64,000 nucleotides of DNA from Metabacillus halosaccharovorans (GTDB lineage Bacteria; Bacillota; Bacilli; Bacillales; Bacillaceae): NCBI RefSeq assembly GCF_002019635.1, contig NZ_KV917372.1:1550001-1614000 (forward strand). Reading direction: 5' to 3'. Both the position numbers and the translations under genes were made by a program. Positions 1 through 33,144 of this stretch are shown one piece after another. The notes beneath the pieces were generated by a model. The model saw only the letters and a program-made list of their open reading frames with translations, was not told the origin of the DNA and searched no databases. The stretch's first letter is position 1, and every line of letters begins with the position of its first letter.

Positions 1-180
1 TTGACCTGACATCAATGCTGTTCGGGAAGGTGCACACGGTGCATCTGACGTATAGTAATTATTAAAACGAACACCCTTTTCTGCAATTTTATCAATATTA
101 GGTGATGTATTACGATGATAACCGTAGCATCCTAGATGACGTGGACTTACTGAATCTAAATCTAAAAATAAAATTCTCAT
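1..180 (-). CDS. Sulfatase, N-terminal 60 residues (cut by window edge)
   Basis: The reading frame starts at the ATG complementary to 178-180, after a GGAG-type ribosome binding site, and runs off the left edge. The 60 visible residues begin [10 protein letters not shown] and contain LGCYGY, the N-terminal pattern of type I sulfatases, with Asp7 and Asp9 as probable metal ligands. Residues 49-53 are C-A-P-S-R followed by TALMSG. This is the Cys-type signature in which the cysteine is converted to formylglycine. No signal peptide is present, so the enzyme should be cytoplasmic and act on imported sulfated oligosaccharides. The GPH symporter gene ends 62 bases upstream on the same strand, so the two are probably co-transcribed. 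The sulfated sugar cannot be told from this fragment. Confidence 0.9.
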
Positions 181-242
181 AATTTCTCTTCTCCTCTTTC
201 CCTATTCTAGTTGAGTGTGAGTTATTATATTTCGCTAAATAA

Positions 243-1610
243 TTAAGCCTCTTTTGCAAAGTCTTTATTAGATTTATTTCTATTTTTCAAGTCTTCTACT
301 ACTTGTGCATGAATTTTATCAAGTTTATAGAACTGCAAAAGGATAAGAACTAATGCAAAACTGATAACTGGAAACCATATAAAGCTAAATTCAATCGCTT
401 TCAGAGTTTCAGTAGATTGTTGAGTTAAAGCTGGGTCATAATGATACATTGCTAATAACCAAGCTCCAGCAGCTCCTCCGATCCCCATTCCAAACTTAGC
501 TGCAAATGTAGAACCTGAGTATAAAAGTCCTGTAGCACGAACACCTGATTTCCACTCACCATAATCAATTGTGTCAGCAATTAGAGAAAATAATAGACTC
601 GGAACGAACCCTAAACCTAACCCGCCAAGCCCTACACCAATTAACAATAATGGTATGGATTGTGTAATTGAACTGAAGTAAATGATTAGAGATCCTACAA
701 TTGCAACGACAATCCCAAACTGCATGGTTTTCTTACCGCCAAGTCTCTTAGTAACAAACGGAATTAACAGCAAGGATACAATCGTTAAATAATTTAAAGC
801 CATGACAACAGGTACAATATCTTCTCTTCCAAAGTTATATTTAAGGAAATAAACGGTTGTTTGGTTACGAATAATAAACACGAAGAAGAAAGCAAGTTTT
901 GCAGTAAAAATAATTAACCACGGTACATTAAACGCTTTCATTCCATCTTTTAAAGGTACACTCTTTTTACTACTATTGTAGTATTCTCTTTCTTTCGTGT
1001 TTTTGAAAGCATTAATAAACATAGGAATTGATATGATACCAAATACTGTCATTGTTAACGCGAAACCCTTTGCATCATTACCGTTTCCAAGGTAAGCAAC
1101 TAAAGGTAACGTGGCAACCGAAACTATAAAACCACCAATCTGCCCGAAAATCATACGGATAGAGGTTACTTCATGACGCTCTTGTGGATTATTTGACATG
1201 CTTGGTAGCATGGCTGATAACGGAATGTTAATAAATGTATAAATAAGGCCTAACAAGATGTAACTAGAATACGCGAATAAGATCTTTCCTTGTGTATCGA
1301 GGTCTGGAGTTAAAAACGTTAAGACACCTACTGCTGCAAACGGAAGAGCTAACCATAGAAAATAAGGTCTACATTTCCCCCATTTCGTACTTGTACGATC
1401 TATTACATAGCCTGCAAGTAAATCTGTTCCTGCGTCGAGAAATCTAACAATCAAGAATAAGGTACCAACAACACCTGCACCTATACCATAAACATCTGTA
1501 TAGAAATAAAGTAAATAAGTTGAGACCATCACAAAAATTAAATTTGAAGCTGTATCTGCTAAACCATAACTGATTCTTTCTTTCCATGAAACTTGATCTA
1601 CTTTATACAT
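243..1610 (-). CDS. GPH-family sugar:cation symporter
   Basis: A 455-residue, roughly 12-helix membrane protein of the glycoside-pentoside-hexuronide (MelB/YicJ-like) family of the major facilitator superfamily. Typical features are the N-terminal ERISYGLADTASN segment, RFLDAGTDLLAG with the family's conserved acidic residues, and DYGEWKSGVRATGL near residue 350. I chose the ATG at 1608-1610 because GGGAGGG sits five bases upstream. An upstream ATG at 1646 would add 12 residues but has no ribosome binding site. It probably imports a glycoside or a uronate-containing oligosaccharide by symport. It is followed by the sulfatase on the same strand. It resembles the second GPH protein at 30184-31539. 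Confidence 0.9.
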   Translation of the reverse strand: MYKVDQVSWKERISYGLADTASNLIFVMVSTYLLYFYTDVYGIGAGVVGTLFLIVRFLDAGTDLLAGYVIDRTSTKWGKCRPYFLWLALPFAAVGVLTFLTPDLDTQGKILFAYSSYILLGLIYTFINIPLSAMLPSMSNNPQERHEVTSIRMIFGQIGGFIVSVATLPLVAYLGNGNDAKGFALTMTVFGIISIPMFINAFKNTKEREYYNSSKKSVPLKDGMKAFNVPWLIIFTAKLAFFFVFIIRNQTTVYFLKYNFGREDIVPVVMALNYLTIVSLLLIPFVTKRLGGKKTMQFGIVVAIVGSLIIYFSSITQSIPLLLIGVGLGGLGLGFVPSLLFSLIADTIDYGEWKSGVRATGLLYSGSTFAAKFGMGIGGAAGAWLLAMYHYDPALTQQSTETLKAIEFSFIWFPVISFALVLILLQFYKLDKIHAQVVEDLKNRNKSNKDFAKEA

Positions 1611-1990
1611 ATTAACCCTCCCATATTTGCGTTTAGATAGAATCAAATTGAAGTATTTGATTACTTTTAAAGAACAAAATATTTTCCCCTGTCACCACCT
1701 TTATATTTGTTTACAGTCTTTAAACTTACTTCAAATGGTCTATTTTACGAATTCCTAAGGCGCCTTTAAACATTACAAAACTATTATGATTTCAGAAAAG
1801 ATCACATGCATTGTAAACGCTTAATCTCCTTATTGGTAATAAGTATACGAGTAATACCGATTTATAGTCCATGTACAATTTATCGATTTCATGTATGATT
1901 TTTTACAACCTTTTTCTTTTTCTATATTTCTAATCAGAGAGATCATGTATAGTAAAATTATAGAAACCATTCATGTAAGGAGGGCTTCAT
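1611..1990. other. 380-base divergent intergenic region between GPH symporter and AraC gene
   Basis: There is no gene here. The region carries a near-consensus cre site (1811-1825) and the ribosome binding site of the AraC gene (1977-1984). CATGTA occurs at 1870, 1890, 1944 and 1972. The first two copies lie 20 bp apart within longer similar sequence (TCCATGTACAAT and TTCATGTATGAT), a spacing suited to AraC-family binding. Promoters for both directions must lie here, but I could not assign clear -35/-10 pairs. Confidence 0.5.
1811..1825 (+). promoter_or_regulatory. cre-like site (CcpA)
   Basis: TTGTAAACGCTTAAT matches the Bacillus consensus WTGNAANCGNWNNCW at every fixed position but one (A in place of the final C). 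It lies about 200 bases upstream of the GPH symporter start, so catabolite repression of the symporter-sulfatase unit is plausible. Confidence 0.45.
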
Positions 1991-2794
1991 ATCATTAACA
2001 TATTAGGGGTTTTTTTTGATAATTTAATTCCGAATTGGCATTCACAAACAGAAAAAATTGATTATAATGTCTTTATTTTAGTAGTAAAAGGAAAAGTCAA
2101 CTATTCAATATATGGAGAACAGATTATTGCTGAAAAGGGAGATCTCGTTTTTATTCCATCTGGAACCTTACGCGGTGCAAAGAATCATGAATCTGGGGAG
2201 CATCAAAAATACACTGTTGCGTTTAAACTAAATGAAACTGTTAATTATTCGAATCCATTTCCTATTGAGAAAAAATTCCATAAGATTAAAACAAGAACTC
2301 CTGAATATGTTAAGCATCGTTTTGAGAGGTTATTTGTGGATAGTAGAGGTGATAAAAAATTCCGATCTTATATTTGTGCTGGAATACTTCAGGAATTACT
2401 TGGTATGTTTGCCCGAGAGCTAGAAAGCCCTACTGTCACACCTAGTAAGGTAAAATACACGTCTATCATTGAGAACTACCTGTTAGAAAATTACCGTAAA
2501 AATATTGAAATAGAGCAGCTCGCAAAATTAATTAATCGGTCACAAAGTTACACAATCTCGATCTTTAAGGAACTAATGGGTCAATCTCCAATTAGATATA
2601 TACATCAACTAAGAATTATTGAAGCATGTAATCTCTTATTAAATACCGATATGACAATAGTAGCTATTTCAGATTATCTCGGATACTATGACCCTTCTTA
2701 TTTTTCTCGTATGTTCAAAAAACTAACGGCCATGTCTCCTAAAGAATTTGCAATGTATGGACACCAGGTTGAGGTTGATGCTTTATTTTCGTAA
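1991..2794 (+). CDS. AraC-family regulator with apparent non-AUG start
   Basis: The frame encodes an N-terminal cupin (AraC_binding) domain, with WHSQTEKIDY near the start and EKGDLVFIPSG further on, and a C-terminal double helix-turn-helix ending in YFSRMFKKLTAMSPKEF. A strong AAGGAGGG (1977-1984) precedes it, but the frame has no ATG, GTG or TTG until the GTG at 2336, which would delete the whole cupin domain. TAA at 1976 closes the frame upstream. The best-spaced candidates are ATC (1991) and ATT (1994), giving 267 or 266 residues. It probably activates or represses the divergent symporter-sulfatase operon in response to a sugar. A sequencing error or a lost start codon is the alternative. 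Confidence 0.75.
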   Translation: MINILGVFFDNLIPNWHSQTEKIDYNVFILVVKGKVNYSIYGEQIIAEKGDLVFIPSGTLRGAKNHESGEHQKYTVAFKLNETVNYSNPFPIEKKFHKIKTRTPEYVKHRFERLFVDSRGDKKFRSYICAGILQELLGMFARELESPTVTPSKVKYTSIIENYLLENYRKNIEIEQLAKLINRSQSYTISIFKELMGQSPIRYIHQLRIIEACNLLLNTDMTIVAISDYLGYYDPSYFSRMFKKLTAMSPKEFAMYGHQVEVDALFS

Positions 2795-2860
2795 AAAGGG
2801 ATTCAAAAAATGATAGTCTTCATTTAATAGTCAATTCAGCATTTAATTTCTTTAAAAAAA

Positions 2861-2891
2861 AAGCGTGAATTCTATTTAAGAATTCACGCTT
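2861..2891. terminator. Bidirectional rho-independent terminator
   Basis: A perfect 12-bp stem (AAGCGTGAATTC at 2861-2872 and its complement at 2880-2891) with a 7-base loop. On the minus strand it is followed by a run of eight T, ending the heparinase-like gene. On the plus strand a weaker T-rich stretch follows, which could end the AraC gene. Confidence 0.85.
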
Positions 2892-2967
2892 GAACATTTT
2901 TTCAAGACAAAAATTGATTCGTCTTTTACTTAACATGCACCTTCCACTTCAGGAAACGTTATACCAT

Positions 2968-4797
2968 TCATTCCCCAAATACAAACCGAAAATCCACACG
3001 AGTAACTTCCCTTAGCTCTTTAACTGCAAAGTCTAACTGATAAAACTCTTCCTGTTCACCAAAGTGATTTAAAAATTGATTTTTTTGGATACTCAAATCC
3101 AATTTATCTCTGTCGAAAAGTATCTTTATCTTTTCAGTACCCACCAACACAACACCATTAGACTCTTCTGTAATCTTTAAAACTGGTGAAATAAATCGTT
3201 CAACGATTGAAGTTGGTTTTTCTGTGCAATAATACATATCAGACAAAATCATTTCAGGTATATGCTTCTTTTTCCATATGAATTTTCTTACTAACTTTTC
3301 TAGTGTTCCAACTTCTTCATAAGCTTTTGCAAATTCCATTTCGAACACATCTTCTTCTTCACTAGTGAGAAAATCAATAATAGAAGCATGCCGCGCTGCC
3401 CCTGCTGACTGATATTGATGATTGATGATTGGAACAGAGTGGCCTTGTGAACCATTACATAAAAATGAATACCGCTCTTGATTAAAATATCCCTCACAAT
3501 ACATTCCACTTCCTAAGTCCTTTAAAAACGTTTCTCCTTTTGCTTGTAAAATAAAATGACCAATATCATTATGATTATGCGGCTCATCATTATGACCGCC
3601 TTTACAGGCAAAAACGTAATCAGTATGTCTTGAAATGAGCCACTGTGAATCTTTCAAGTAGTATGTTGCATATCCCCAAGGTTTTCCCGCTTTATTCTCA
3701 TCAAACCAAATTAAATTTCTAAATGCCGGTGCCCATCTGCTGCAATGATCATCAGCATATGCTGCACGAAGCTCTGTTTCAGGCACTTCAAGCTTCGGAA
3801 AGACATCCTTTAAATAATGACTTAAGCCTAAAAAGACAGATCCTGTTTCTGTTGAATCAGAGAAATTCACGACCTTATTTTTATAAATAAAACATTTCTG
3901 CTGAAAAGCAGCAATTTGATCGACTTTATCTATCCGAAATAAATCAATTGCTCCAGATGTTTTTTTCTTAAGTAAGTCGGCAAAATAAACATAGTAACCA
4001 AAGCCATATTGCCAGTATCCATATCCCTCCATACAGGCTCCATCTTCATTAAAACCCTTTAAATAATAGGTCATTGCCTGAACAACTCTCTCTAAAATAG
4101 AGGTGAGCATATGTTCATCATCCACAACATACAAAGCAGCTGCACCAATTGAGCCTGCACAAACCGCTGCCCAGTTATGTGTGGATGTCTCCCAATGGAA
4201 TGAGTGATTTTGAAACGGTAGTAGGACTCTGCGGTACACCTCCTGTTTCATTCTCTTCTGAATAAGCGGATCCAGAACATGGTCCATTAATTTATTTATT
4301 TCACTAAGTGTAAAGGCAGTCTCAGCTGCAAAAAGATCAATGGTATAATGGGGATTTTGTATCGTTTGTAGAAAATCCTCTTCATGTTCTGTCTTCATCT
4401 CAGGACTATTCTTCAAGTGTGCTGGTAAACACCAGCTGTATTCATTACATATCGACCAAATTGTCTCGTGTAATTCCCTTAAATAAGCAGAATCGGTTGG
4501 TTCTAATAAAGTCATGATCGCAAACGTATTAAGGCGTCTTCTTTTGGCAAAATAGCTTTTTTCATATTCAAGTCTTGAGCCTGTTTCTCTGAAGATCGTA
4601 AATTCTTCAAATGTTAGTTCTTTTATGGGATGTTGCAGTAGCTTATCTGCTTCTTCTCTTATTTCGGTAATCAATGACGAATAGGATAATTTTCTCTTTA
4701 TGCTTTCAAACCAGTTTGCTTGGTCTTTTTTTGATGAGAACAAAAGAGATGAGGCATTTGCCTTCAACATCTTTTCAAATTCAATAAACAATGACAT
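2968..4797 (-). CDS. Heparinase II/III-like protein (putative polysaccharide lyase)
   Basis: A 609-residue protein with an alpha-helical N-terminal half, including HNWAAVCAGSIGAAAL near residue 208 and the GYGYWQYG segment. The C-terminal beta-rich half carries GGHNDEPHNHNDIGHF and DLGSGMYCEGYF, the pattern of the heparinase II/III superfamily (PL12/15/21 relatives). It has no signal peptide, so it should be cytoplasmic. Lyases of this fold cleave next to uronic acids and leave a 4,5-unsaturated end. That fits the GH88 hydrolase at 10388-11515. It is the last gene before the terminator at 2861-2891. Exact substrate and catalytic residues cannot be assigned here, and some members of the superfamily are not proven lyases. 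Confidence 0.8.
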   Translation of the reverse strand: MSLFIEFEKMLKANASSLLFSSKKDQANWFESIKRKLSYSSLITEIREEADKLLQHPIKELTFEEFTIFRETGSRLEYEKSYFAKRRRLNTFAIMTLLEPTDSAYLRELHETIWSICNEYSWCLPAHLKNSPEMKTEHEEDFLQTIQNPHYTIDLFAAETAFTLSEINKLMDHVLDPLIQKRMKQEVYRRVLLPFQNHSFHWETSTHNWAAVCAGSIGAAALYVVDDEHMLTSILERVVQAMTYYLKGFNEDGACMEGYGYWQYGFGYYVYFADLLKKKTSGAIDLFRIDKVDQIAAFQQKCFIYKNKVVNFSDSTETGSVFLGLSHYLKDVFPKLEVPETELRAAYADDHCSRWAPAFRNLIWFDENKAGKPWGYATYYLKDSQWLISRHTDYVFACKGGHNDEPHNHNDIGHFILQAKGETFLKDLGSGMYCEGYFNQERYSFLCNGSQGHSVPIINHQYQSAGAARHASIIDFLTSEEEDVFEMEFAKAYEEVGTLEKLVRKFIWKKKHIPEMILSDMYYCTEKPTSIVERFISPVLKITEESNGVVLVGTEKIKILFDRDKLDLSIQKNQFLNHFGEQEEFYQLDFAVKELREVTRVDFRFVFGE

Positions 4798-4901: not shown

Positions 4902-6749
4902 TTATATTGTTATTGTAATTGGGTCATGATTACTAAAACGAATCTTCATTTGATCTTCTGTAACCTCTACCTCTGGTGCATGTTCCCAACACTGTTCCTT
5001 GCTGCCGGATTCTCCATAGACTGCACTAACTAAAAAGCTGGTTCCTGGGGTAATTCTCTTTTGAATCGTCGGGATAACCGTACGAGAATGTAGTATGTTT
5101 GTATTAGAGTTCGGATAAATGAATGTTGCTTTTCCTTCACCATAAAGGCTCTTCACTCCACTTACTCCCCATAATGTCTTAATCATACATTCTTGATCCT
5201 CTTGAAGAATTTCCACCTGTGGTTCTAGTTTCTTATCTTCAATTCCTAATGCAAAGCCCCCATCAGCTGTATCTAGCAATCTGTCAGTCTCAATGCGGTG
5301 AATTCTAATATGCCAAGGAGTACCCGGAACAAGCCAAGTCTTGACTTCTACATCAGTCCAAGGCTTCCATTTGGAATAGATATAATCATTCTCTATCGTA
5401 AATTCTTCGCTATTTCTTTTTACTCGATAAAGATTATCTCCTTCACTTAAGGCTAACATTGAATCAAATGCCCCCTGTGAAAGGCCCCACTCTGCTCGGG
5501 GAACACTAAATCCAAAAGCTGTGGAATAGACAAATTTCTCATATTTTGCTGATGTATGCGTATGTTCATTTGTTGATACATGACCTGAGTTAAATGCTAG
5601 AGCATGATCGCCGGCTTCATTGCGACATATAATGAGATGAGGTTCTTTCTGAACCACTTTCACACCAATGTTAGGGAGTGGTTCCTCTTCTGACTTCCAG
5701 AACGGATGCTCCTTATCTAGCGCCAACGGTAAAAATGCTTTTAATGACCAATAAGGAGAACCTGGTGAATTATAGTTTTCTCCCATAACTAAGTTTGGAT
5801 AAGAGTATCCGATCGTCAAAATACCCGTATCATTGAAAATAGGTTGTTTAAACCACCATCTTAAATTTCTCAGAATAATCCCTTTCATGACACCTATCGA
5901 AAAAGGCTCTATGCCTGCATATACAGCCGCACTCCAAAATGAGATACTAGCAAATCTATACGTCAAGCTTCGACCGTAAGGAATCGCGGAGCCATCTGAT
6001 GAAAACCATGCGATAAAGTCTCTTGCAAATTCCTCTGCTCGAGCCTTATAATTCTGAGACCTAATTGGATCTTCTTTTTCCATAACCTTCGCATAGATTA
6101 ATCCATAATAATGAAAAGCAAAGGGTACATAATAATCTGAATGTCCATTAATACCATCTGCATACCATCCATTAGATAAATAAAATTGATCGATTCTCTC
6201 TAAGTTCACTGCTATTTTTTCTCGATCATACGGTTCTCCAACATTTTTTAACCCTAAGTTAACTAGAACAGCGAAAAATAGCCAATTACAATCATGTGCA
6301 TGACATTGATTAACCTGAGATAACCAAGCACTTACATTCTCTCTTTCTTGTAGAGTAAGAGGTTCCCATATCTTGTTTGGTATAAGTAATAAAGCAAGAC
6401 CAAATGAAGCCATCTCAACAATTCTTTGATCAAAATGCTTAATCTCTCCCCAGTATTCCTCATGATTAGGGTTTGTTCCATTTTTTAATCCTTGTAGATG
6501 CATGTCCCACAGGTCATACTCGACATCTGTACCTGCAAAAAAGGGTGCCAAACCCCATAAAAGTCTCGAGAATCCCTCCATCTCTGAAGTAGAATCAGAG
6601 TAAGCAGCACTTGTGTTACCTAATTTTATGCGCGCAAAGCCTTTACTATAAAAAGGCTTTAATGGATTACAAATTTGTCTTAATGCCTCTTCAACATCTT
6701 CTCTGGTTTTGAGTGGATTGGTTTTAATAGAATCCGAATAGGTTAGCAT
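4902..6749 (-). CDS. DUF2264 domain protein, putative glycoside hydrolase
   Basis: A 615-residue protein that aligns by eye with the DUF2264 family across its length: TREDVEEALRQICNPLKPFYSKG at residues 15-37, then EMEGFSRLLWGLAPF, and HDCNWLFFAVLVNLGL. The fold expected is an alpha/alpha barrel with a C-terminal beta domain. DUF2264 proteins occur in polysaccharide loci, and I recall that some are classed as family GH154 beta-glucuronidases. That assignment is from memory and needs a database check. It has no signal peptide. The start is supported by AAAGGAG ten bases upstream. It lies between the response regulator gene (84 bases upstream) and the heparinase-like gene, and is probably co-transcribed with both. 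Confidence 0.8.
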   Translation of the reverse strand: MLTYSDSIKTNPLKTREDVEEALRQICNPLKPFYSKGFARIKLGNTSAAYSDSTSEMEGFSRLLWGLAPFFAGTDVEYDLWDMHLQGLKNGTNPNHEEYWGEIKHFDQRIVEMASFGLALLLIPNKIWEPLTLQERENVSAWLSQVNQCHAHDCNWLFFAVLVNLGLKNVGEPYDREKIAVNLERIDQFYLSNGWYADGINGHSDYYVPFAFHYYGLIYAKVMEKEDPIRSQNYKARAEEFARDFIAWFSSDGSAIPYGRSLTYRFASISFWSAAVYAGIEPFSIGVMKGIILRNLRWWFKQPIFNDTGILTIGYSYPNLVMGENYNSPGSPYWSLKAFLPLALDKEHPFWKSEEEPLPNIGVKVVQKEPHLIICRNEAGDHALAFNSGHVSTNEHTHTSAKYEKFVYSTAFGFSVPRAEWGLSQGAFDSMLALSEGDNLYRVKRNSEEFTIENDYIYSKWKPWTDVEVKTWLVPGTPWHIRIHRIETDRLLDTADGGFALGIEDKKLEPQVEILQEDQECMIKTLWGVSGVKSLYGEGKATFIYPNSNTNILHSRTVIPTIQKRITPGTSFLVSAVYGESGSKEQCWEHAPEVEVTEDQMKIRFSNHDPITITI

Positions 6750-10254: not shown

Positions 10255-10290
10255 AAAATTCCTCCTCCAATAAAAGGATAAGACACAAGC

Positions 10291-13975: not shown

Positions 13976-13987
13976 ATAGTTCCCCCC

Positions 13988-24130: not shown

Positions 24131-24148
24131 GCTAATCCCTCCTTTATG

Positions 24149-25033: not shown

Positions 25034-25102
25034 GCTGTTTTCACTCCTAACAACTTTAAGGTAACAGGAAGGGGTCATATCTGAACCCTTCCTTGTCATT
25101 TC

Positions 25103-26398
25103 TTACTTAGCACTTTTTAAAGACTTTTCTAGGTTGCTTACATATTCTTCAGGAGTAATTCCTTCATTTAGTAAGTTTTGTGCACCATCTTCAGCAACTG
25201 TTTTTGATTTTGGATCAAAGTATCCTTCGAACCAAAGAGCAGTGTTCTCAACGCTTTCAATTTTTTCAAGTGTTGTTTTTGTTAATGGACTAACATCCTC
25301 AGGCATGTTTTCAACTTTGAATCCAGAAATTAAACCTCGCTCTGAAATCGCTTTTTCTCCGTAGTTACTGAAAACTTCCTTCATCCATTCTCCAACTTGT
25401 TCATCGTATTTTTGTTTAGAGAATGAAAGTGTTAAACCAGCATTCATTGAATAATCGTTGATTGTTCCTTTTCCACCTTCTACAAGTGGAATATTGAAGA
25501 ATCCAATATTATCAATACCAATTTTGTTTACATTTTCATCGTTAAATTCGTTAAGTGCCCAGCTACCCATGTAGTACATTGCTGCATTTCCTTGTAAGAA
25601 TGTATTACTTGCTGTATCGTAGTCAATCGTATTTACGCCTTGACCAAAATACCCTTTTACATTCATATCTTGAACGATTTTTGCTGCTTCAACAAAGCCT
25701 TTATCTTTAATGCTTAATTCTCCATCTCTTACTTGCTTCATAGCGTCCGCACCATAATAACGGATAACATATCCATTGATTAAACGAGTAATCGGAAACT
25801 TCTCCTTACCTGCTACTGCAAATGGTTGAATTCCTTTTTCCTTAAACTTCTCACTAACAGCCATCATTTCTTCCCATGTAGTAGGAACTTCCAAGTTGTT
25901 TTCTTCAAATAATTGTTTGTTATACCAAAAACCTTCAATATTTAACTCTACAGGTAAAGCATAAAGCCCTCGGTCACCACTTAAACTCTTTAATAAATCA
26001 ACAGCACCTGGATTTAATCTGTCATAGATTCCTAGGTCCGTAAATGTTTTTTCAAGATCAAGCACTTGCTCGTTATCAATCATATCTCCCAGCTGATTTG
26101 ATTCGTATTTAAAAAGTTCAGGCAAATCATTACTAGCTGTTAATAGCTGAATTTTTTGCATTAGATTCGTTTGTAATACTGTTTCTAATTCAATGTTTGC
26201 TTCTGTATTTTCCTCAGTAAGCCCCATGATGATGCTTGCATCTGATTCATCGGCAGTATCTTCAGAAATAAATTTCATCGTGTTGTCACCATCTTCACTG
26301 CCTGAAGCGCCTTCATTATTTTTACCACCGCTACATCCTACTACTGAAAAAATCAGTATGATAGAAAGTAGGCTTATCAATAAATTTTTCTTCATCAT
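25103..26398 (-). CDS. Sugar ABC transporter solute-binding lipoprotein
   Basis: A 431-residue family 1 solute-binding protein. Its signal peptide ends in a lipobox (VVGC followed by SGG), giving a lipid-anchored protein. The binding domain includes VPTTWEEMMAVSEKFKEKGIQPFAVAG and AAMYYMGSWALNEF, typical of oligosaccharide binders of CUT1 importers. The ATG at 26396-26398 follows GAGGGGG at good spacing. It is the first gene of the importer-GH78 operon, preceded by overlapping cre-like sites and CTGAAAAA repeats (26462-26515). Confidence 0.92.
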   Translation of the reverse strand: MMKKNLLISLLSIILIFSVVGCSGGKNNEGASGSEDGDNTMKFISEDTADESDASIIMGLTEENTEANIELETVLQTNLMQKIQLLTASNDLPELFKYESNQLGDMIDNEQVLDLEKTFTDLGIYDRLNPGAVDLLKSLSGDRGLYALPVELNIEGFWYNKQLFEENNLEVPTTWEEMMAVSEKFKEKGIQPFAVAGKEKFPITRLINGYVIRYYGADAMKQVRDGELSIKDKGFVEAAKIVQDMNVKGYFGQGVNTIDYDTASNTFLQGNAAMYYMGSWALNEFNDENVNKIGIDNIGFFNIPLVEGGKGTINDYSMNAGLTLSFSKQKYDEQVGEWMKEVFSNYGEKAISERGLISGFKVENMPEDVSPLTKTTLEKIESVENTALWFEGYFDPKSKTVAEDGAQNLLNEGITPEEYVSNLEKSLKSAK

Positions 26399-26461
26399 AA
26401 AATCCCCCTCTATCTTCATGTTCTTTAGGACTACTTTGTCCTTGCTTTTTATTCTATCTCT

Positions 26462-26486
26462 TTGAAAACGCTTGTGTAAGCGCTTG
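26462..26486. promoter_or_regulatory. Overlapping cre-like sites upstream of importer-GH78 operon
   Basis: TTGAAAACGCTTG and GTGTAAGCGCTTGAT overlap in tandem. Each keeps the cre core (AANCG with the TG box) but has two mismatches to WTGNAANCGNWNNCW. They lie about 65-90 bases upstream of the binding-protein start, where CcpA could act on the importer-rhamnosidase operon. Confidence 0.45.
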
Positions 26487-26515
26487 ATTTTTCAGATAAT
26501 GTCCGTTTTTTTCAG
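26487..26515 (-). promoter_or_regulatory. CTGAAAAA direct repeats, candidate response-regulator operator
   Basis: On the minus strand CTGAAAAAA and CTGAAAAAT are repeated 20 bp apart, directly upstream of the cre-like sites. Almost the same motif (CTGTAAAAAG twice, 21 bp apart) precedes the divergent GPH symporter gene at 30063-30093. Two-turn spacing of direct repeats is what a two-domain AraC-type regulator such as the neighbouring YesN-like protein would need. Confidence 0.45.
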
Positions 26516-26551
26516 TTAATTCTTAAATATTAGTTATAAAAAATGTAAAAA

Positions 26552-26578
26552 GAGCACACGGAATAAGCCCGCTTGCCC
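26552..26578 (-). terminator. Terminator after the response regulator gene
   Basis: On the minus strand GGGCAAGCGG and CCGTGTGCTC form an imperfect GC-rich stem followed by TTTTTAC, immediately after the stop codon. It separates the sensor-regulator genes from the importer operon. Confidence 0.6.
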
Positions 26579-26579
26579 T

Positions 26580-28064
26580 TTAGTCATTTTGAATCTTATA
26601 TTGCTTTGGTGTCATGCCAGTATATTTTTTAAAAACCTCAGAAAAGTGTCTATAGGTTAAATATCCCACTTCCTCACTGACATCTGAAATTTTCCTCCCT
26701 TCTTTAAGCATGATCTTTGCTTGTTCCATCCTATATTTTGTTAGATATTTTATATAAGTAAGTCCGATTTCCTCTTTGAATAGTAAACTAAAATAGTTTG
26801 GATTCATATCCACGACATTTGCTACTTCCTGAAGTGTTATATCTAGATTATAATGGCTTTCAATATATTTCTTCGCTTTCTCAACAGCTTTGTGTTTATT
26901 TGTTTTTTTAGAACCATTGATTAAATCAAACATCATTTCCATCTGCCTAAACAACCACTCTATCATCTCATCTTTTGTTGTTTGCTCACGAATTTCTTTT
27001 TGAGGATAATAGCCCGATTGTTTTATATCTTCCCCTGTTTCCTTAACAACCTCCAAACCTAAATAGACAAGTTTTAATAGTTCACTTTCTATAATATCTG
27101 GATTTAGCTTTTTTAAATCGATCCATTGTATATATTTTGTTAATTGATCTAGCAACCCTTCCTTATCACCAGTTCTCATATAAAACAAAACAGCTTCTTC
27201 TTGGGCGGATAAGTTTTCAGGGATTTTATCATTAGTCCCAACATCTTCAAATCGGGTCCATCCTTTGCTGTCCAAAAATCTTCCGTATCTTAAAGCATGT
27301 AAAGCTTCCCTGTAACTCTTTGTTAAATCTGTTATTCTTTCATAGGTTTGTCCGGAGCCAATTGTTACCTCTTCACGTTCTGTCCAAATGATCAACTGGT
27401 TTGAAAATAATTCAAGTTTTTCTTTCAAATGAAAGAATACTAGTAGGTGCGTGGAGCCATTCCAAACGGGCACAACCTTGTAGTCATCATTATTATCTAT
27501 TGGAAAGCTCTTACCTGAATAAGCAATGACTGTTGTTCCTATTATTTGTCCTGCTTCACCCTCTCCAAAACACTCCCTCCACTTAGCTTCTATTTCTTTG
27601 TTTCCTAGCATTAATTCTAACGTTGCTTTTTCTAATAACTCCTGTCTATTTTCATCCCATCTCGAGCGGAGCTCCGTAACTTCATTATCTTTCTTTATTT
27701 GAAAAACAATTTTCTGAAGGGCTTCCTCAATCATTGGAATCGTAATAGGTTTTTGCATGTAATCAAGCACACCCAATTTTAAAGCTTTCTTAACATATTC
27801 AAACTCGTTAAAGCCACTAAAAACAATGCATTTTGTTTCTGGAGCTTCTTTTAAGACTTTACTAACTAACTCCAATCCATCAATACCGGGCATTCTGATA
27901 TCAGTGAAGATGATATCTGGACGTTCAGTGTAAAAAAGTTCTAAAGCAGAATTTCCGTCTTTTGCTGTACCAACTACTTCCATACCGTATTTAGACCAAT
28001 CGACCATTTTTCTCAAACCTTCGATTACAATAAATTCATCATCATAAATTGCGACTTTCAACAT
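26580..28064 (-). CDS. YesN-type response regulator (REC + AraC HTH)
   Basis: A 494-residue regulator. The receiver domain has YDDE at 7-10, phospho-acceptor Asp55 in IIFTDIRMPG, and a switch Lys in DYMQKP. A linker follows, then the AraC-type double helix-turn-helix near residues 395-492 (SHYNLDITLQEVANVVDMNPNYF and HFSEVFKKYTGMTPKQY). The gene overlaps the kinase gene by 23 bases. It probably activates the importer-GH78 operon and the divergent symporter gene through the CTGWAAAAA repeats. Confidence 0.93.
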   Translation of the reverse strand: MLKVAIYDDEFIVIEGLRKMVDWSKYGMEVVGTAKDGNSALELFYTERPDIIFTDIRMPGIDGLELVSKVLKEAPETKCIVFSGFNEFEYVKKALKLGVLDYMQKPITIPMIEEALQKIVFQIKKDNEVTELRSRWDENRQELLEKATLELMLGNKEIEAKWRECFGEGEAGQIIGTTVIAYSGKSFPIDNNDDYKVVPVWNGSTHLLVFFHLKEKLELFSNQLIIWTEREEVTIGSGQTYERITDLTKSYREALHALRYGRFLDSKGWTRFEDVGTNDKIPENLSAQEEAVLFYMRTGDKEGLLDQLTKYIQWIDLKKLNPDIIESELLKLVYLGLEVVKETGEDIKQSGYYPQKEIREQTTKDEMIEWLFRQMEMMFDLINGSKKTNKHKAVEKAKKYIESHYNLDITLQEVANVVDMNPNYFSLLFKEEIGLTYIKYLTKYRMEQAKIMLKEGRKISDVSEEVGYLTYRHFSEVFKKYTGMTPKQYKIQND

Positions 28065-29829
28065 CCTTCATCCATCTCCCTTCATTAGGGTTGAATCGAA
28101 TAATAATTTTCGTCCCCTTATTAATTTCACTTTCTATTTTTAAGGAACTAGTAGGACCGTAGTAAATGGCTAATCTCTCACGTACATTTCCTAATCCATA
28201 TCCTTTTTCCGTCATTTTCATGTCTTTTATTCCAATTCCATCGTCTTCTACAGTAAACAAGACAAACTCTTTATTTTCTTTTCTTCCTGTTAGAAGAATT
28301 GTCCCTTTCCCTACTTTGGGCTCTAGCCCATGATAAATGGCATTTTCAACAAGCGGCTGAAGCAGTAACTTTAAAACTTCTTGGTCCATAAGTGATTCGT
28401 CTATTTCTTGAATATAAGTAAATCGATCACCAAACCGTATATTTTGAATGGTCATATAGTATTCAATGTGTTTTAACTCCTTATGAAGAGGGATTACTTC
28501 TTTCCCTTTACTTAATATAATTTTAAAACTTTCAGATAATGAAATGGCCATTTTTCCAATATCCTCATGATTGTGAATCATAGCCATCCAATAAATCGAG
28601 TCAAGCGTGTTATAAAGAAAATGTGGATTAATTTGTGATTGCAAAACTCTTAGTTCGGTTTCTCTCTCTTTTAGCTGAGACTTTATAAGTCTTTCGTTTA
28701 GTTCTTTATTTTCTACCGCCATTTTCTTAAACGTTTCTCCAATTTCTCCAACTTCATCATCTTGAAATTTTTCATCAAATTTATTAGATCCTTTTGCCCA
28801 GGCAATCATCATTCTTTTTAGTTGCCGTAAAGGACGAGAGATTGTATCAGATAAGATAACTGATAGGATTACGGCACTTATGGCAATAAGAACTGCGATA
28901 AGGTTTGTAACCGCTCTTATTTTGTGTGGCTGTTTAAACAGCTCCTCCTCCTTGATTAAATAGGCAAATATCCAGTCAGTTGTTTTATTTGTGTAGTGGC
29001 TTACTACAAATTCTTCCTCTTGCATTATATTAGAAATGTCTGATAAATTTTTTTTCGATAAATCTTTATAAAAGGTTGGATTCGAAAAATAAACAGGTTT
29101 TACTTCTTCTTCTGTGGAATCTAAAATTATATATTCGTCATTGTTAGTCCGATTCATCATATCTGAAAACATAGATTTATTGATATTGACAATCAATAGC
29201 CCAATCTTTTCTTGATCACTTGTTACTGGATTCCGTAATAGTTTTACAGATGAAAATGTTTTATTTACGTCCTGGTCATCTAATACATTGTCATGGAAGA
29301 AAATCTCCTTCCCTTTAGCATTCAAGGCCTTTTGATACCACTCACTTGATCTAATTTCGCTACTTTTATTTTCTTTTTCATAGCGACCCGCATTATCAGA
29401 ACGCCCGTAACAAACCGCACGAAAATGGTTATCAAATAAACAGACTGAATCAATATATTTTTGTTCTACCACATAATCTGACATAATTTTTTGTAATTTA
29501 CTTGATGTACCTAGTTTTAGAGACTCCTGCTCTACATCCGATATTGATCCGCTTTCAATTAACTGTTGACGCAAGTCCTCATTTGATAATATAAACCGCT
29601 CCATATTAATGACATTACGTAGCAAAAGATCTGCTTTCTCACTAATGGATTTTAAGTTATTTTCATTTGATTGCAGATGGTTCTCCACTAACGTTTCTTT
29701 AGATGTATGGTATGAAACCACTCCAATAATAAAAATTGGAGGTAACGACAATGCAATCATAACTGCTAAAAAGCGATTTCGAATTCTACGAAATCGGAAA
29801 TACGAAATAAATTTTAGAAAATTTAACAT
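28042..29829 (-). CDS. YesM-type sensor histidine kinase
   Basis: A 595-residue sensor kinase. It has a first transmembrane segment near residues 18-40, an extracellular Cache-like region, and a second transmembrane segment near 305-325. A HAMP domain (SRPLRQLKRMMIAWAKG) follows. The His_kinase domain has LQSQINPHFLYNTLDSIYW, and the ATPase domain has PLVENAIYHGLEP and EDDGIGI. The ATG follows AAAGGAAGG. It is paired with the overlapping response regulator and most likely senses a rhamnose-containing oligosaccharide outside the cell. Confidence 0.92.
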   Translation of the reverse strand: MLNFLKFISYFRFRRIRNRFLAVMIALSLPPIFIIGVVSYHTSKETLVENHLQSNENNLKSISEKADLLLRNVINMERFILSNEDLRQQLIESGSISDVEQESLKLGTSSKLQKIMSDYVVEQKYIDSVCLFDNHFRAVCYGRSDNAGRYEKENKSSEIRSSEWYQKALNAKGKEIFFHDNVLDDQDVNKTFSSVKLLRNPVTSDQEKIGLLIVNINKSMFSDMMNRTNNDEYIILDSTEEEVKPVYFSNPTFYKDLSKKNLSDISNIMQEEEFVVSHYTNKTTDWIFAYLIKEEELFKQPHKIRAVTNLIAVLIAISAVILSVILSDTISRPLRQLKRMMIAWAKGSNKFDEKFQDDEVGEIGETFKKMAVENKELNERLIKSQLKERETELRVLQSQINPHFLYNTLDSIYWMAMIHNHEDIGKMAISLSESFKIILSKGKEVIPLHKELKHIEYYMTIQNIRFGDRFTYIQEIDESLMDQEVLKLLLQPLVENAIYHGLEPKVGKGTILLTGRKENKEFVLFTVEDDGIGIKDMKMTEKGYGLGNVRERLAIYYGPTSSLKIESEINKGTKIIIRFNPNEGRWMKDVESRNL

Positions 29830-30062
29830 AACAACCTTCCTTTAATCTTTTTTCCATACTCATTAACATCTATTTAGGTAACGCTGCCAAAATAAAAAAA
29901 CTCCTATCCAAAACAAATAAAATATAAAACAAGATAAGTAAAAATATATTTTTATTATTATAAAGATAAAACAAAACACCTGATGTGTCATTAAGTTTTA
30001 CTAGTTGGTAGATATAACTAATGAAAAATATTTAATTTAGATTGCTTCCCGCAATTCTCCAC

Positions 30063-30093
30063 CTGTAAAAAGAGCAATTTATTCTGTAAAAAG
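30063..30093 (+). promoter_or_regulatory. CTGTAAAAAG direct repeats, candidate response-regulator operator
   Basis: CTGTAAAAAG occurs exactly twice, at 30063-30072 and 30084-30093, a 21-bp (two helical turn) period. It lies about 95-120 bases upstream of the GPH symporter start and echoes the CTGAAAAA pair at 26487-26515. I read it as the operator for the YesN-like regulator encoded next door. Confidence 0.5.
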
Positions 30094-30110
30094 CTCATTG
30101 TGAACGGATT

Positions 30111-30125
30111 TAGAAAACGCTTTAA
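30111..30125 (+). promoter_or_regulatory. Weak cre-like site upstream of GPH symporter
   Basis: TAGAAAACGCTTTAA keeps the AAACG core but has two mismatches to WTGNAANCGNWNNCW. It lies downstream of the CTGTAAAAAG repeats and about 60 bases before the symporter start. Confidence 0.3.
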
Positions 30126-30183
30126 TATAAATAGACTTTATTTCAAATTTAAAATTAAATTATAAATATCGGAGGTAATATAA

Positions 30184-31539
30184 ATGAATTCAACTGGTGT
30201 ATGGCGCCAGCGATTAGGTTATGGAGTAGCAGATTTCTCATGTAACTTAGTCTGGCAAATGATAACGCTTTATTTAATGTTCTTTTACACAGATGTGATG
30301 GGCTTAGCCCTTGTGCAGGTCAGTTTACTCTTCTTAATTACACGTTTTGTGGATGCGATTACAGATACAATTATGGGAGTCATTATTGATAAAACAAATA
30401 CTCGTTGGGGAAAATCCAGACCTTACTTTCTTCTAGGTGCGATTCCTTTTGGCCTATTAGCAGTATTGGCTTTTTACGTACCTGACATTGGTCCTGTTGG
30501 CAAGTTGGTTTATGCTTATATTACTTATATCGGTTTATCTACTGCTTATACAATGGTAAATATTCCATTGGCATCAATTCTACCGAGTTTAACAAGTGAT
30601 GAACAAGAGCGTACAAATTTAGCAACAGTTCGGATTATTTTCTCATTTATTGGAGCTACAGCTGTAAGTGCCATTACTCTACCAATGGTAAATATGCTGG
30701 GTAATGGCTCCCAAGCCCAAGGCTTCTTTTGGACAATGGTTATTTTCGCCATTGTTGCAACCGTATTCTTCTTTGTTACCTTTAAAAACGTCGAGGAAAA
30801 AGTAAAACTTCGTCAAGAAAAGGTTACTGTAAAACAGGCATTTTCTTCATTAAAGGGAAATCGTCCTTGGTATATTTTTGCCATCAACATTGTCTTCATG
30901 TGGGGCTCTCATTTCTTTATGCAGGGGGCATTAATCTATTACTTTACGTATAATGTAGGACGTCCTGAGCTTGCTTCTGTGGTTGCTAGTATTGGAGCTT
31001 TCGTGCCGATCATTGGTACATTTGCTACACCATTTATTTCGAGAAAAATGTATAAGAAAATGTTGTTTATGATATCTAGTACGATTAATCTTGCAGGTAT
31101 TATTATTATGTTAGTTGCAGATATCAATGTAACCGGTTTAATAATCGGTGCTGTTATTGCCGCTTTAGGTTTTGGATTAAGACAAAGCATCTATTTCTCT
31201 ATGCAAGCTGATCCTGTTGATTATGGTGAGTGGAAAAGTGGAATTAGTGCAGCAGGCCTCATGATGTCATTGAATGGATTTATTGGAAAAGTAGCGCTTG
31301 CTGCTGCTGGTGCCCTTTCAGGACTTTTCATGAGTTGGGGTAATTATGTACCTAATGAAACACAAACAGCTTCGGCATTGCTCGCGATTAAAATGAATTA
31401 TTTAATCATTCCGGCTGGTATGGTTGTGATTTCAATGATTATCATGAGTTTTTATAATCTTGATAAAATCTTCCCGAAAATTCGTGCCGAACTTAATAAC
31501 CGTGATCATGCTCATCATTCAACTGAACAATCTGCGTGA
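30184..31539 (+). CDS. GPH-family sugar:cation symporter
   Basis: A 451-residue, 12-helix GPH-family symporter closely related to the protein at 243-1610. It has LGYGVADFSCNLVWQ at the N-terminus, TRFVDAITDTIMG, and DPVDYGEWKSGISAAGLMMSLNGF. GGAGG precedes the ATG at good spacing. It is co-transcribed with the short GH78-like gene that starts 30 bases after its stop. It probably imports a small rhamnoside or uronate-rhamnose disaccharide. Confidence 0.92.
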   Translation: MNSTGVWRQRLGYGVADFSCNLVWQMITLYLMFFYTDVMGLALVQVSLLFLITRFVDAITDTIMGVIIDKTNTRWGKSRPYFLLGAIPFGLLAVLAFYVPDIGPVGKLVYAYITYIGLSTAYTMVNIPLASILPSLTSDEQERTNLATVRIIFSFIGATAVSAITLPMVNMLGNGSQAQGFFWTMVIFAIVATVFFFVTFKNVEEKVKLRQEKVTVKQAFSSLKGNRPWYIFAINIVFMWGSHFFMQGALIYYFTYNVGRPELASVVASIGAFVPIIGTFATPFISRKMYKKMLFMISSTINLAGIIIMLVADINVTGLIIGAVIAALGFGLRQSIYFSMQADPVDYGEWKSGISAAGLMMSLNGFIGKVALAAAGALSGLFMSWGNYVPNETQTASALLAIKMNYLIIPAGMVVISMIIMSFYNLDKIFPKIRAELNNRDHAHHSTEQSA

Positions 31540-31569
31540 CTAACTTTTTAATAGAATGGAGAGAAAAAT

Positions 31570-33144
31570 ATGACAGCACATATCCAAAAAGTAGAAAATC
31601 AAGTTATCGATCGAAATGAAAAGTTCATATCAACAGCTGAGAACTTAAAGCCCGAGTTTGTGAAGGACACCGTAACACCAACAAACATTGTAAAAATTGA
31701 AGAAAACTCTGCTAAAATTCATGGATGGGAACCAAAGGTGATCGAATCAGCAGACAATCTATCATCCTATGATTACGGAAAAGGTGATGAAGTCATTCTT
31801 GACTTCGGCACTCATCTAGTTGGGTATCTATCTATGAATATCATTCCAGTAGGGAGCCCACCGGATGCTCCCCTTCATTTGAAGGTAACATTTGGTGAAA
31901 TGCCAGTTGAAATGGCTGTGCCCTTCTCAGAATACAACGGATGGATTAGTTCCTCATGGCTCCAGGAAGAAACGTTACATATAGATGTAATGCCAGGAAT
32001 ACTCGAGTTGCCACGTCGTTACAGCTTCCGTTACGTAAAAATCGAAGTATTAGATACTTCAAAAAAATATCGGGTTGCTTTTGAGAACCTCCAATGTGAA
32101 ACTGTGACTTCTGCAGATGTTAATAGAGTTACAGAGATTCATCAATTTGATCCAGTCCTGGATCAAATTGATAAAGTCAGTATTAAAACATTGCAGGATT
32201 GTATGCAGGAGGTTTTTGAAGACGGACCAAAACGAGACCGCCGCTTATGGCTTGGCGATCTGCGATTACAGGCCCTTGCTAATTACGAAACATTCCAAAC
32301 AAATGATTTAGTCAAGCGCTGCTTGTATCTATTTGCCGGTGTTCCTGATAATAAAGGGAGAATTTCTGCAAATTTATTTATCGCTCCTTCCCTTATTCCT
32401 GACGACACCTATTTGTTTGATTACTCACTGTTGTTTACGACAACATTATTTGATTATTATGAAGCAACAAAAGATACTAATACATTAGCAGAGCTTTGGC
32501 CACTTGCTTACAGGCAAGTTGAACTTGCTCTTGAGCGACTAGATGATAAAGGAATTGTGATAGATGATGAATCATGGTGGTCATTTATTGACTGGCACGA
32601 AGATCTTAACAAACAAGCACCTTCCCAAGCTATTTTGATTTACACAATTCGTCGAACAATAGAATTGGCAAAGGTTATGAATAGTGACAAACAACTATTT
32701 TTGGAAGAACAACTTCAACGTATAGTTAAAGCAACGATTACACATCTTTGGGATAATGATAAAGGTTTTTTTGTAAGTGGTGCAAAACACCAGGTATCTT
32801 GGGCAAGTCAAATTTGGATGGCACATGCGGAAGTATTAGAGCCGGATGCAAATCGAAAGCTAATTCTTCATCTATTATCAGAGAAACCTGATATCGGGTT
32901 AACAACTCCATATATGTATCATTACTTGGTTGAAGCGTTAATTTTAGTCGGAGAAAAGAAAAAAGCTGTAGCTCAGTTAAAGGCCTATTGGGGAGAAATG
33001 ATCAAGGATGGTGCCGATACGTTTTGGGAGTTATATGATCCGGATAACAAGGATTTTTCACCATATGGAAGTTATCTCATCAACAGCTATTGTCATGCGT
33101 GGAGCTGTACGCCAACCTATCTTATCAGAAAATATCAACTATAG
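31570..33144 (+). CDS. Short GH78-like alpha-L-rhamnosidase family protein
   Basis: A 524-residue protein resembling the C-terminal half of GH78 enzymes. A beta-sandwich portion (DYGKGDEVILDFGTHLVGYL) precedes the alpha/alpha barrel with EDGPKRDRRLWLGDLR, which corresponds to the D-x-PKRDER catalytic segment of the full-length enzyme. It continues with WWSFIDWHEDL and DTFWELYDPDNKDFSPYGSY, where the conserved Glu lies, and ends CHAWSCTPTYLIRKY. It lacks the N-terminal domains found in the 901-residue GH78 at 20425-23130. It has no signal peptide and probably cleaves small rhamnosides delivered by the symporter encoded just upstream. Confidence 0.85.
   Translation: MTAHIQKVENQVIDRNEKFISTAENLKPEFVKDTVTPTNIVKIEENSAKIHGWEPKVIESADNLSSYDYGKGDEVILDFGTHLVGYLSMNIIPVGSPPDAPLHLKVTFGEMPVEMAVPFSEYNGWISSSWLQEETLHIDVMPGILELPRRYSFRYVKIEVLDTSKKYRVAFENLQCETVTSADVNRVTEIHQFDPVLDQIDKVSIKTLQDCMQEVFEDGPKRDRRLWLGDLRLQALANYETFQTNDLVKRCLYLFAGVPDNKGRISANLFIAPSLIPDDTYLFDYSLLFTTTLFDYYEATKDTNTLAELWPLAYRQVELALERLDDKGIVIDDESWWSFIDWHEDLNKQAPSQAILIYTIRRTIELAKVMNSDKQLFLEEQLQRIVKATITHLWDNDKGFFVSGAKHQVSWASQIWMAHAEVLEPDANRKLILHLLSEKPDIGLTTPYMYHYLVEALILVGEKKKAVAQLKAYWGEMIKDGADTFWELYDPDNKDFSPYGSYLINSYCHAWSCTPTYLIRKYQL

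What the first reader, a model, noticed from the sequence alone, without database searches (positions are those of the whole stretch)
1..33144. Candidate Bacillaceae locus for a sulfated rhamnose-uronate polysaccharide
One region combines a formylglycine-type sulfatase, a heparinase II/III-like lyase, GH88 hydrolase, DUF2264 protein, two GH78-type rhamnosidases, a secreted GH59-like enzyme, two ATPase-less ABC importers and two GPH symporters. Rhamnose catabolism follows directly. Enzyme types together imply a polymer with sulfate, uronic acid and rhamnose, perhaps with beta-galactose. Ulvan and sulfated arabinogalactan are the leading ideas. Bacillus pectin loci (yes/yte) lack the sulfatase and lyase set, so this would be a different substrate class.
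Basis: partly seen in the sequence, partly recalled or inferred. Interest (0 to 1): 0.75.

Follow-up and report, generated by a model that had tools for sequence, protein, structure and literature searches.

The report
Stacked sugar-eating modules, not one locus
This stretch of a Metabacillus-like genome is a stack of separately inherited sugar-degrading gene sets around one widely conserved set that probably strips glucuronic acid from galactose-rich plant gums; the sulfate- and rhamnose-handling genes beside it are separable add-ons, so the guess of one sulfated rhamnose polymer is not supported by the gene linkage.

Summary
The gene list is real. The sulfatase has a CAPSR motif but only 60 of its 513 codons lie in the window; a formylglycine-generating enzyme gene sits beside it. 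The 'heparinase-like' protein is PL33-like (PL33_2 signature, catalytic residues kept). DUF2264 matches the GH154-type glucuronate dehydratase (9 of 10 active-site residues), a known partner of GH88.

Comparison of genomes breaks the region up. A core (PL33, DUF2264, GH88, two-component system, ABC importer, secreted GH59) recurs across Bacilli. The sulfatase segment (5.6 kb) is missing, with 95%-identical flanks, from sister Bacillus sp. J37. AraC-GPH-sulfatase sits elsewhere in M. bambusae at 93% sulfatase identity, while PL33 there is 64% identical. The rhamnosidase segment (14.4 kb) is missing from both sisters and stands apart from PL33 in another Metabacillus.

Best reading: the core takes 4-substituted and terminal glucuronate off galactan-type oligosaccharides (type II arabinogalactan most likely). 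Beta-galactosidase-type and exo-beta-1,3-galactanase-like genes recur beside PL33; GH20, sought with one query, does not. Ulvan and obligatory sulfation are not supported. Substrate is inferred; no activity was measured.

The parts
1..180 (-). N-terminal 60 codons of an S1-type sulfatase without signal peptide by inspection (513 aa; continues left to C2:1548639); FGE gene directly beyond it (C2:1547557-1548507)
   Evidence: CAPSR motif; FGE has a C-x4-C pair by inspection
243..1646 (-). GPH-type symporter 1 (sulfatase cassette)
   Evidence: TIGR00792 410 bits; 87% identical in the cassette of M. bambusae
1991..2794 (+). AraC-type regulator beside the sulfatase cassette, intact frame without ATG/GTG/TTG start
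   Evidence: AAGGAGG and ATCATTAAC kept in two relatives
1..2962 (.). window part of the accessory sulfatase segment (whole: C2:1547341-1552962)
   Evidence: absent from Bacillus sp. J37, 344 bp in its place, flanks 95% identical
2968..4797 (-). PL33_2-like polysaccharide lyase, no signal peptide by inspection
   Evidence: 8r73 1e-34; residue map; conserved in 16 aligned sequences
4902..6749 (-). DUF2264/GH154-type protein, predicted beta-glucuronate dehydratase
   Evidence: PF10022 443 bits; 9o4u 2e-26; 9 of 10 active-site residues
6833..8440 (-). response regulator of core (RR1)
   Evidence: 47 of 80 named PL33 loci
8440..10326 (-). sensor kinase of core (HK1, dCache)
   Evidence: 46 of 80
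10388..11515 (-). GH88 unsaturated glucuronyl hydrolase
   Evidence: 1vd5 1.2e-74; 64 of 80
11642..14926 (-). ABC importer of core: binding lipoprotein and two permeases
   Evidence: SBP1 50, permeases 47 and 46 of 80
15116..15739 (-). DUF624 protein
   Evidence: PF04854 98 bits; 19 of 80
16005..19805 (-). secreted GH59-type enzyme, E200 and E297 invariant
   Evidence: PF02057 246 bits; 12 of 12 close PL33 genomes, 10 within 20 kb
19826..34228 (.). accessory rhamnoside segment: GH78, ABC importer 2, two-component system 2, GPH2, second GH78, AraC
   Evidence: absent from both sister genomes, about 0.6 kb in its place; same genes apart from PL33 in another Metabacillus
20425..23268 (-). GH78 alpha-L-rhamnosidase (with Rha78A-type N-terminal domain)
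   Evidence: PF17389 400 bits, PF25788
23282..26419 (-). ABC importer 2
26580..29829 (-). two-component system 2
30184..31539 (+). GPH symporter 2
   Evidence: TIGR00792 415 bits
31570..33144 (+). GH78 rhamnosidase like PDB 4xhc
   Evidence: 4xhc 9e-177
33179..34168 (-). AraC regulator of rhamnoside segment
36478..50211 (-). rhamnose uptake, sensing and catabolism (MFS, RhaM, TCS, binding protein, RhaA, FGGY kinase, regulators, aldolase-dehydrogenase fusion)

Best explanation
The region is three stacked modules plus rhamnose catabolism. (1) Conserved core, 2968-19805. A secreted GH59-type enzyme releases galactose-containing, glucuronate-bearing oligosaccharides, most likely from type II arabinogalactan. 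A two-component system senses them and an ABC importer takes them up. In the cytoplasm the PL33_2-like lyase cuts 4-substituted glucuronate (for example Rha-1,4-GlcA), the DUF2264/GH154-type protein dehydrates terminal saturated glucuronate, and both routes give a delta-4,5 uronate that GH88 removes. (2) An accessory AraC / GPH symporter / sulfatase / FGE segment imports and desulfates some small sulfated sugar. (3) An accessory segment imports and cuts rhamnosides. Shown: gene content, residue conservation, conserved core, the two indels. Inferred: every activity, the substrate, the order of steps.
For: Core: in 80 named PL33 loci with at most 10-kb flanks (69 of them over 21 kb long), GH88 in 64, SBP1 50, permeases 47 and 46, RR1 47, HK1 46, DUF2264 42; sulfatase, FGE and GPH1 each in 1, GH78a in 1 (a recount without its overlap filter). 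GH59 in 12 of 12 close PL33 genomes, 10 within 20 kb on the same contig. Residues: PL33 R103, H154, N238, W239, Y291, H444, Y470, F475 kept, with V and Y at the PL33_2 positions; DUF2264 9 of 10. Segments: with copies elsewhere. Substrate: a beta-galactosidase/galactanase-type gene (GH2, GH35, GH42, GH43_24, GH59) in 30 of 80 named and 10 of 32 unnamed PL33 loci against 3 of 40 control regions (Fisher 0.0004 and 0.013). Two GH43s beside PL33 best match structures that include exo-beta-1,3-galactanases. 28 of 29 Bacilli genomes with such a GH43 also have PL33. The window's genome has one (86% identical) and no PL8 lyase.
Against: No activity is shown. The PL33 activities in PMC11848413 are on glycosaminoglycans, gellan and, weakly, glucuronan; arabinogalactan is not among those I saw. 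50 of 80 named loci have no searched-for galactose-type gene within 10 kb. Co-occurrence is confounded by ancestry: 16 of the 29 GH43_24 genomes are one genus (12 of 13 without it), and PL8 also co-occurs with PL33 (11 of 16; 10 if weak PL33 hits are dropped). The own exo-galactanase-like gene lies on another contig. No endo-galactanase was sought. With looser counting an S1 sulfatase lies near PL33 in 3 of 80 loci (L109, L168, L176). Gain or loss of the sulfatase segment in J37 is not settled. Separate inheritance does not prove separate function.
Confidence: 0.55

Rival explanations
1. One locus for one sulfated, rhamnose- and uronate-bearing polymer (sulfated arabinogalactan or similar), assembled by accretion so that all three modules now serve the same substrate in this strain.
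For: The modules sit side by side next to rhamnose catabolism. A sulfatase is needed for sulfated arabinogalactan in B. plebeius (PMC8406133). The sulfatase family (E <= 1e-60) is in 19 of 398 class genomes and 9 of these 19 also have PL33, against 50 of 398 overall (8 if weak PL33 hits are dropped). In M. bambusae PL33 lies between two GH43 genes and 6 kb from a GH78a gene.
Against: Each module has its own regulator and importer. The sulfatase is absent at 1e-60 from 10 of 12 close PL33 genomes. Apart from the window's own, the class genomes holding both have them at different places. In M. bambusae the cassette sits with an ABC importer, another sulfatase and an SSF symporter on another contig than PL33.
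Confidence: 0.2
2. The core degrades a glycosaminoglycan-like or gellan-like polymer, as known PL33 enzymes do.
For: PL33 activities in print: hyaluronan, chondroitin sulfate, heparosan, gellan, some dermatan sulfate and glucuronan (PMC11848413). Sulfatase, lyase, GH88 and GH154-type dehydratase is close to the enzyme set of the B. caccae chondroitin pathway (PMC12269599). PL8 co-occurs with PL33 in 11 of 16 class genomes.
Against: No GH20 in 112 PL33 loci of two overlapping sets (one GH20 query of one subtype; other hexosaminidases not sought); no PL8 in the own genome; GH59 and other beta-galactosidase types recur instead; gellan lacks galactose (recalled), so GH59 would be unexplained.
Confidence: 0.2
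3. Ulvan locus.
For: Ulvan has GlcA and Rha3S and needs lyase, sulfatase, rhamnosidase and unsaturated-uronyl hydrolase; an ulvan dehydratase is known (PMC8511951). The sulfatase's best solved relative by a small margin is 6hhm (85 bits), recalled as an ulvan sulfatase.
Against: The lyase is PL33-like; the known ulvan dehydratase is stated to be unrelated in sequence to GH154 (PMC12269599); many other sulfatases score nearly as well; the sulfatase and rhamnosidase segments are separable; GH59 is unexplained.
Confidence: 0.05

Closest known systems
B. caccae PUL25 chondroitin pathway (BcPL35, BcGH88, BcGDH; PMC12269599)
   Same: Heparinase-like lyase, GH154-type glucuronate dehydratase and GH88 acting together
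   Different: PL33-like instead of PL35; DUF2264 with a second domain; GH59 and ABC importer here, GH109 there; substrate probably galactan-based
PL33 subfamily 2 lyases (PMC11848413)
   Same: Catalytic residues and the Val/Tyr signature
   Different: Here beside a dehydratase and GH88, no signal peptide, no activity known; three of the five purified PL33_2 enzymes in that paper were inactive on its panel, the other two cut gellan or chondroitin sulfate
Bacteroides arabinogalactan-protein PULs (GH154 BT3677, GH43_24, GH145/PL42, GH105; sulfatase in B. plebeius)
   Same: GH154-type protein with second domain, uronate removal, exo-beta-1,3-galactanase-like gene in the genome
   Different: PL33-like lyase in place of GH145/PL42, GH88 in place of GH105, GH59, galactanase not linked
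Bacillus yes/yte RG-I locus (recalled)
   Same: ABC importer without ATPase gene, two-component system, rhamnose
   Different: The PL11/GH105/GDSL set is not in this locus; it has its own locus about 30-39 kb left

Membership tests
PL33 (subfamily 2) | Sequence relation to PL33 structures | tested here: met
   8r73 1.1e-34, 8r75, 8r6z, 8r70; next PL35 at 2e-17; entries tied to PL33 by PMC11848413
PL33 (subfamily 2) | Catalytic N238, Y291, H444 and GlcA-binding R103, H154 | tested here: met
   N208, Y261, H407, R75, H127, all invariant in the 16 sequences
PL33 (subfamily 2) | Val for W242 and Tyr at position 301 | tested here: met
   V212, Y271. The mapped chain 8r73 has Asp, not His, at 301, so the offset rests on the other residues
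PL33 (subfamily 2) | Lyase activity, tunnel, zinc site | not testable with these tools
GH154-type glucuronate dehydratase | DUF2264 domain and the ten active-site residues mutated in BcGDH | tested here: met
   PF10022 443 bits; 9 of 10 identical, N176 is D153
GH154-type glucuronate dehydratase | Dehydratase activity feeding GH88 | not testable with these tools
   a GH88 gene is in the same gene cluster
GH88 unsaturated glucuronyl hydrolase | Sequence relation to solved UGL | tested here: met
   1vd5 1.2e-74; catalytic residues not checked
GH59 | Catalytic domain and two catalytic Glu | tested here: met
   PF02057 6e-73; E200, E297 invariant among the 15 sequences aligned (up to 4 gaps per column allowed); their roles assigned from recall of galactocerebrosidase
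S1 sulfatase, formylglycine type | C-x-P-S-R motif and maturation enzyme | tested here: met
   CAPSR, FGE beside it
S1 sulfatase, formylglycine type | SulfAtlas subfamily and substrate | tested here: inconclusive
   best structures 85 bits downward with many substrates
Ulvan PUL | Ulvan lyase of PL24/25/28/40 | tested here: inconclusive
   none named among the 40 window proteins or the 10 left-flank proteins, but Pfam may not name those families
Arabinogalactan utilization locus | Exo-beta-1,3-galactanase (GH43_24) in the locus | tested here: inconclusive
   a close relative is in the genome at C1:1057494 but on another contig than the locus
Glycosaminoglycan locus | PL8 lyase or GH20 hexosaminidase | tested here: not met
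   no PF02278 in own genome; no GH20 in PL33 loci with one query

The most novel reading that the evidence does not exclude
The Bacilli clade of PL33_2 is a new specificity: an intracellular lyase for 4-substituted glucuronate caps (Rha-1,4-GlcA) of type II arabinogalactan, paired with a GH154-type dehydratase so that capped and uncapped glucuronate converge on GH88, and fed by a secreted GH59 enzyme that is a new galactanase. This would be a Gram-positive route to plant gums that uses no glucuronidase.
Probability: 0.33. Interest if true: 0.6.

Novelty: new variant of a known kind. Interest (0 to 1): 0.42.

Why it matters
It gives a ready test of what unassigned PL33_2 lyases and bacterial GH59 enzymes act on, since the lyase, dehydratase, GH88 and GH59 genes travel together in many Bacilli. 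It also shows why reading substrate composition from neighbouring genes can mislead: two of the three sugar cues here (sulfate, rhamnosidases) lie on segments that close relatives lack.

Tried and rejected
Rejected: a single sulfated rhamnose-uronate locus as the plain reading, because of the two empty sites. Ulvan, because no ulvan-type lyase was seen. The PF00884 protein at 53881-55884 as part of the pathway (outside the locus, other architecture). The AraC fragment at 2336-2794 as a pseudogene: the full frame is open and its unusual start context is kept in two relatives.

Led nowhere: literature for DUF2264 (none) and PL33 with arabinogalactan (2 listings, not opened, both look incidental), none. 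The sulfatase's substrate stays open: neighbours of its relatives include GH3, GH20, GH35, SOGP phosphorylases and other sulfatases. GH115 was seen once beside PL33. Border repeats of the rhamnoside segment: longest shared word 10 bases, so no mechanism of movement is shown. The structure prediction was polled 21 times, last, and was not finished; no fold search was made.

Corrections: one search printed Fisher values with a placeholder of 0 of 40 controls; the true count is 3 of 40 and the values used are those. Counts passed an overlap filter that hid some ORFs; one search is the recount without it. Named and unnamed PL33 sets overlap (for example L050 and L115, L051 and L137, L055 and L181, judged by equal contig lengths), so they are not added up. 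Of the 50 PL33 class genomes, G088 and G166 are weak matches. The unnamed set holds 32 loci from 32 of those 50 genomes, best matches first plus some lower ones; 18 genomes were left out. The 80 named loci are the best 80 of 448 relatives found. The control regions were fixed round coordinates in 20 of the PL33 genomes, not random draws.
Full report
Observation. The window is G000:C2:1550001-1614000 of a 5.4-Mb genome. Its nearest named relatives by PL33 are Metabacillus niabensis EaN21-8 (94%) and Bacillus sp. J37 (92%). DNA around PL33 is 95.6% and 95.4% identical to them. The sulfatase is nearly all outside the window. It was read from the flank (L011): 513 aa, no signal peptide by inspection, CAPSR motif, with an FGE gene (PF03781) beyond it.

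What the proteins are. The protein at 2968-4797 has no Pfam match at 0.001 but matches PL33 structures at 1e-34 to 6e-32 and PL35 at 2e-17. Mapping through the printed alignment with one offset gives R103, H154, N238, W239, Y291, H444, Y470 and F475 all kept. W242 is Val and position 301 is Tyr, the PL33_2 marks given in PMC11848413 (outline and Results section read; mapping). L174 is not kept in that alignment. The catalytic residues are invariant in the 16 sequences. The DUF2264 protein matches BcGDH (9o4u) and keeps 9 of its 10 mutated active-site residues, with N176 as Asp. BcGDH is a beta-glucuronate dehydratase that feeds GH88, and its authors argue that GH154 as a whole is such a family (PMC12269599, outline and sections 8-10). 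The GH88 protein matches unsaturated glucuronyl hydrolase. GH59 has a signal peptide by inspection and keeps two Glu (E200, E297) among 15 aligned sequences; their catalytic roles are assigned by recall of galactocerebrosidase.

Conserved core. PL33-like genes occur in 50 of 398 Bacilli genomes at E <= 0.001 (two are weak). In 80 named loci, the best 80 of 448 relatives, the neighbours are GH88 64, SBP1 50, permeases 47 and 46, RR1 47, HK1 46, DUF2264 42, DUF624 19, GH59 10. Sulfatase, FGE, GPH1 and GH78a are each found in 1 (flanks at most 10 kb, 69 of 80 loci over 21 kb, the rest cut by contig ends). With a looser count any S1 sulfatase is in 3 of 80. GH59 is 11 kb away in the window and so is missed by such flanks. 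Searched in 12 close genomes it is in all 12, and within 0.4-18 kb of PL33 on the same contig in 10.

Sulfatase segment. In J37 the DNA for C2:1547341-1552962 (FGE, sulfatase, GPH1, AraC) is missing, with 344 bp in its place and both flanks about 95% identical. EaN21-8 keeps AraC, GPH1 and sulfatase, but beyond them has a different FGE (58%, other strand), a LacI regulator and a second sulfatase. At 1e-60 the sulfatase is in 2 of 12 close genomes. In one of them, M. bambusae, AraC-GPH1-sulfatase lies on another contig than PL33, at 93% sulfatase identity against 64% for PL33, beside an ABC importer, another sulfatase and an SSF symporter. The high sulfatase identity against low PL33 identity points to horizontal transfer. 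Apart from the window's own, the class genomes with hits to both have them at different places. Gain or loss in J37 cannot be told.

Rhamnoside segment. In both J37 and EaN21-8, GH59 is followed at once by the SpoIIE-like gene of window 34273. In EaN21-8 window 19826-34228 (GH78a, ABC importer 2, two-component system 2, GPH2, GH78b, AraC) is absent, with 610 bp in its place; in J37 the match resumes at window 34125 and about 0.64 kb separates it from GH59, that border being inferred from coordinates. The same genes (GH78b, GPH2, HK2, RR2, SBP2, both permeases, GH78a) stand together on a different contig from PL33 in Metabacillus sp. 961-2-3Z; the AraC gene was not seen in the stretch taken. 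In three other relatives (L266, L267, L268) GH78a goes with the kinase/regulator pair, in L267 and L268 also with rhamnose genes. Against full separation, in M. bambusae GH78a lies 6 kb from PL33 with an exo-galactanase-like GH43 between.

Substrate of the core. Neighbours of PL33 elsewhere include GH2, GH35, GH42, GH43 with Big_4, GH59, GH115, PL3-type pectate lyase and chondroitinase-B-type genes. The two GH43s checked best match a set of structures that includes several named exo-beta-1,3-galactanases; the label GH43_24 is by that resemblance, and the top chains are deposited as 'beta-glucanase'. A gene of the galactose set is in 30 of 80 named and 10 of 32 unnamed PL33 loci, against 3 of 40 control regions. 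GH20, with one query, was found in none of these PL33 loci and in 1 control. Over 398 genomes 29 have the GH43_24 type (E <= 1e-30), and 28 of them PL33; PL8 is in 16, of which 11 have PL33. These are not independent events: 16 of the 29 are one genus, and 12 of 13 remain without it. The own genome has one GH43_24 (86% to that beside PL33 in M. bambusae) and no PL8. Arabinogalactan side chains carry GlcA and Rha on beta-galactan, with Rha-1,4-GlcA caps in gum arabic and wine arabinogalactan (PMC8377490 outline and abstract; PMC4052742 passages; PMC8406133 first part and passages). Hence type II arabinogalactan is the best fit, at moderate confidence. A GAG or gellan target stays open because the PL33 activities in print are of that kind.

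Against this reading: 50 of 80 named loci show no galactose-set gene within reach; no activity is measured; no paper found shows a PL33 enzyme acting on arabinogalactan (2 listings not opened, 21 listings, of which only PMC12269599 was opened). Sulfated arabinogalactan cannot be excluded as a use that this strain makes of the stacked modules, since B. plebeius needs a sulfatase for it (PMC8406133).

Verdict. The single-polymer interpretation is not borne out by linkage. What remains of interest is the conserved PL33_2, dehydratase, GH88 and GH59 module with an unassigned and testable substrate.

Noticed in passing
window 1991-2794 (+): AraC regulator with an intact frame but no ATG/GTG/TTG start; a ribosome-binding AAGGAGG followed by ATC ATT AAC is kept in EaN21-8 and M. 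bambusae, so an AUU or AUC start is likely.
   Followed up: partly
L018 16870-19248 (C2:372870-375248 of the own genome): Second pair of a short DUF2264/GH154-type gene and a GH88-type gene beside ABC permease genes.
   Followed up: no
window 36672-43182: J37 lacks this stretch at this place (MFS transporter, RhaM, two-component system, binding protein) while keeping rhamnose isomerase, kinase and the aldolase fusion.
   Followed up: partly
L009 983-9632 (C2:1510983-1519632): RG-I locus of yes/yte type: PL11, GH42, GDSL esterase, GH105, binding protein.
   Followed up: partly
L094 6462-18508: Run of several sulfatase-like genes with ABC importer genes in an unnamed Bacilli genome, containing the relative most similar to the window's sulfatase in the class set (72%).
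   Followed up: no
window 53881-55884: PF00884 protein of 667 aa, looks like a lipoteichoic-acid-synthase-type protein, not a formylglycine sulfatase (by architecture and recall).
   Followed up: no
L133 (Metabacillus niabensis isolate Q2603): This record labelled M. niabensis carries a PL33 only 53% identical to the window's, unlike EaN21-8 at 94%, so one of the two labels may be wrong or the genes are paralogues.
   Followed up: no
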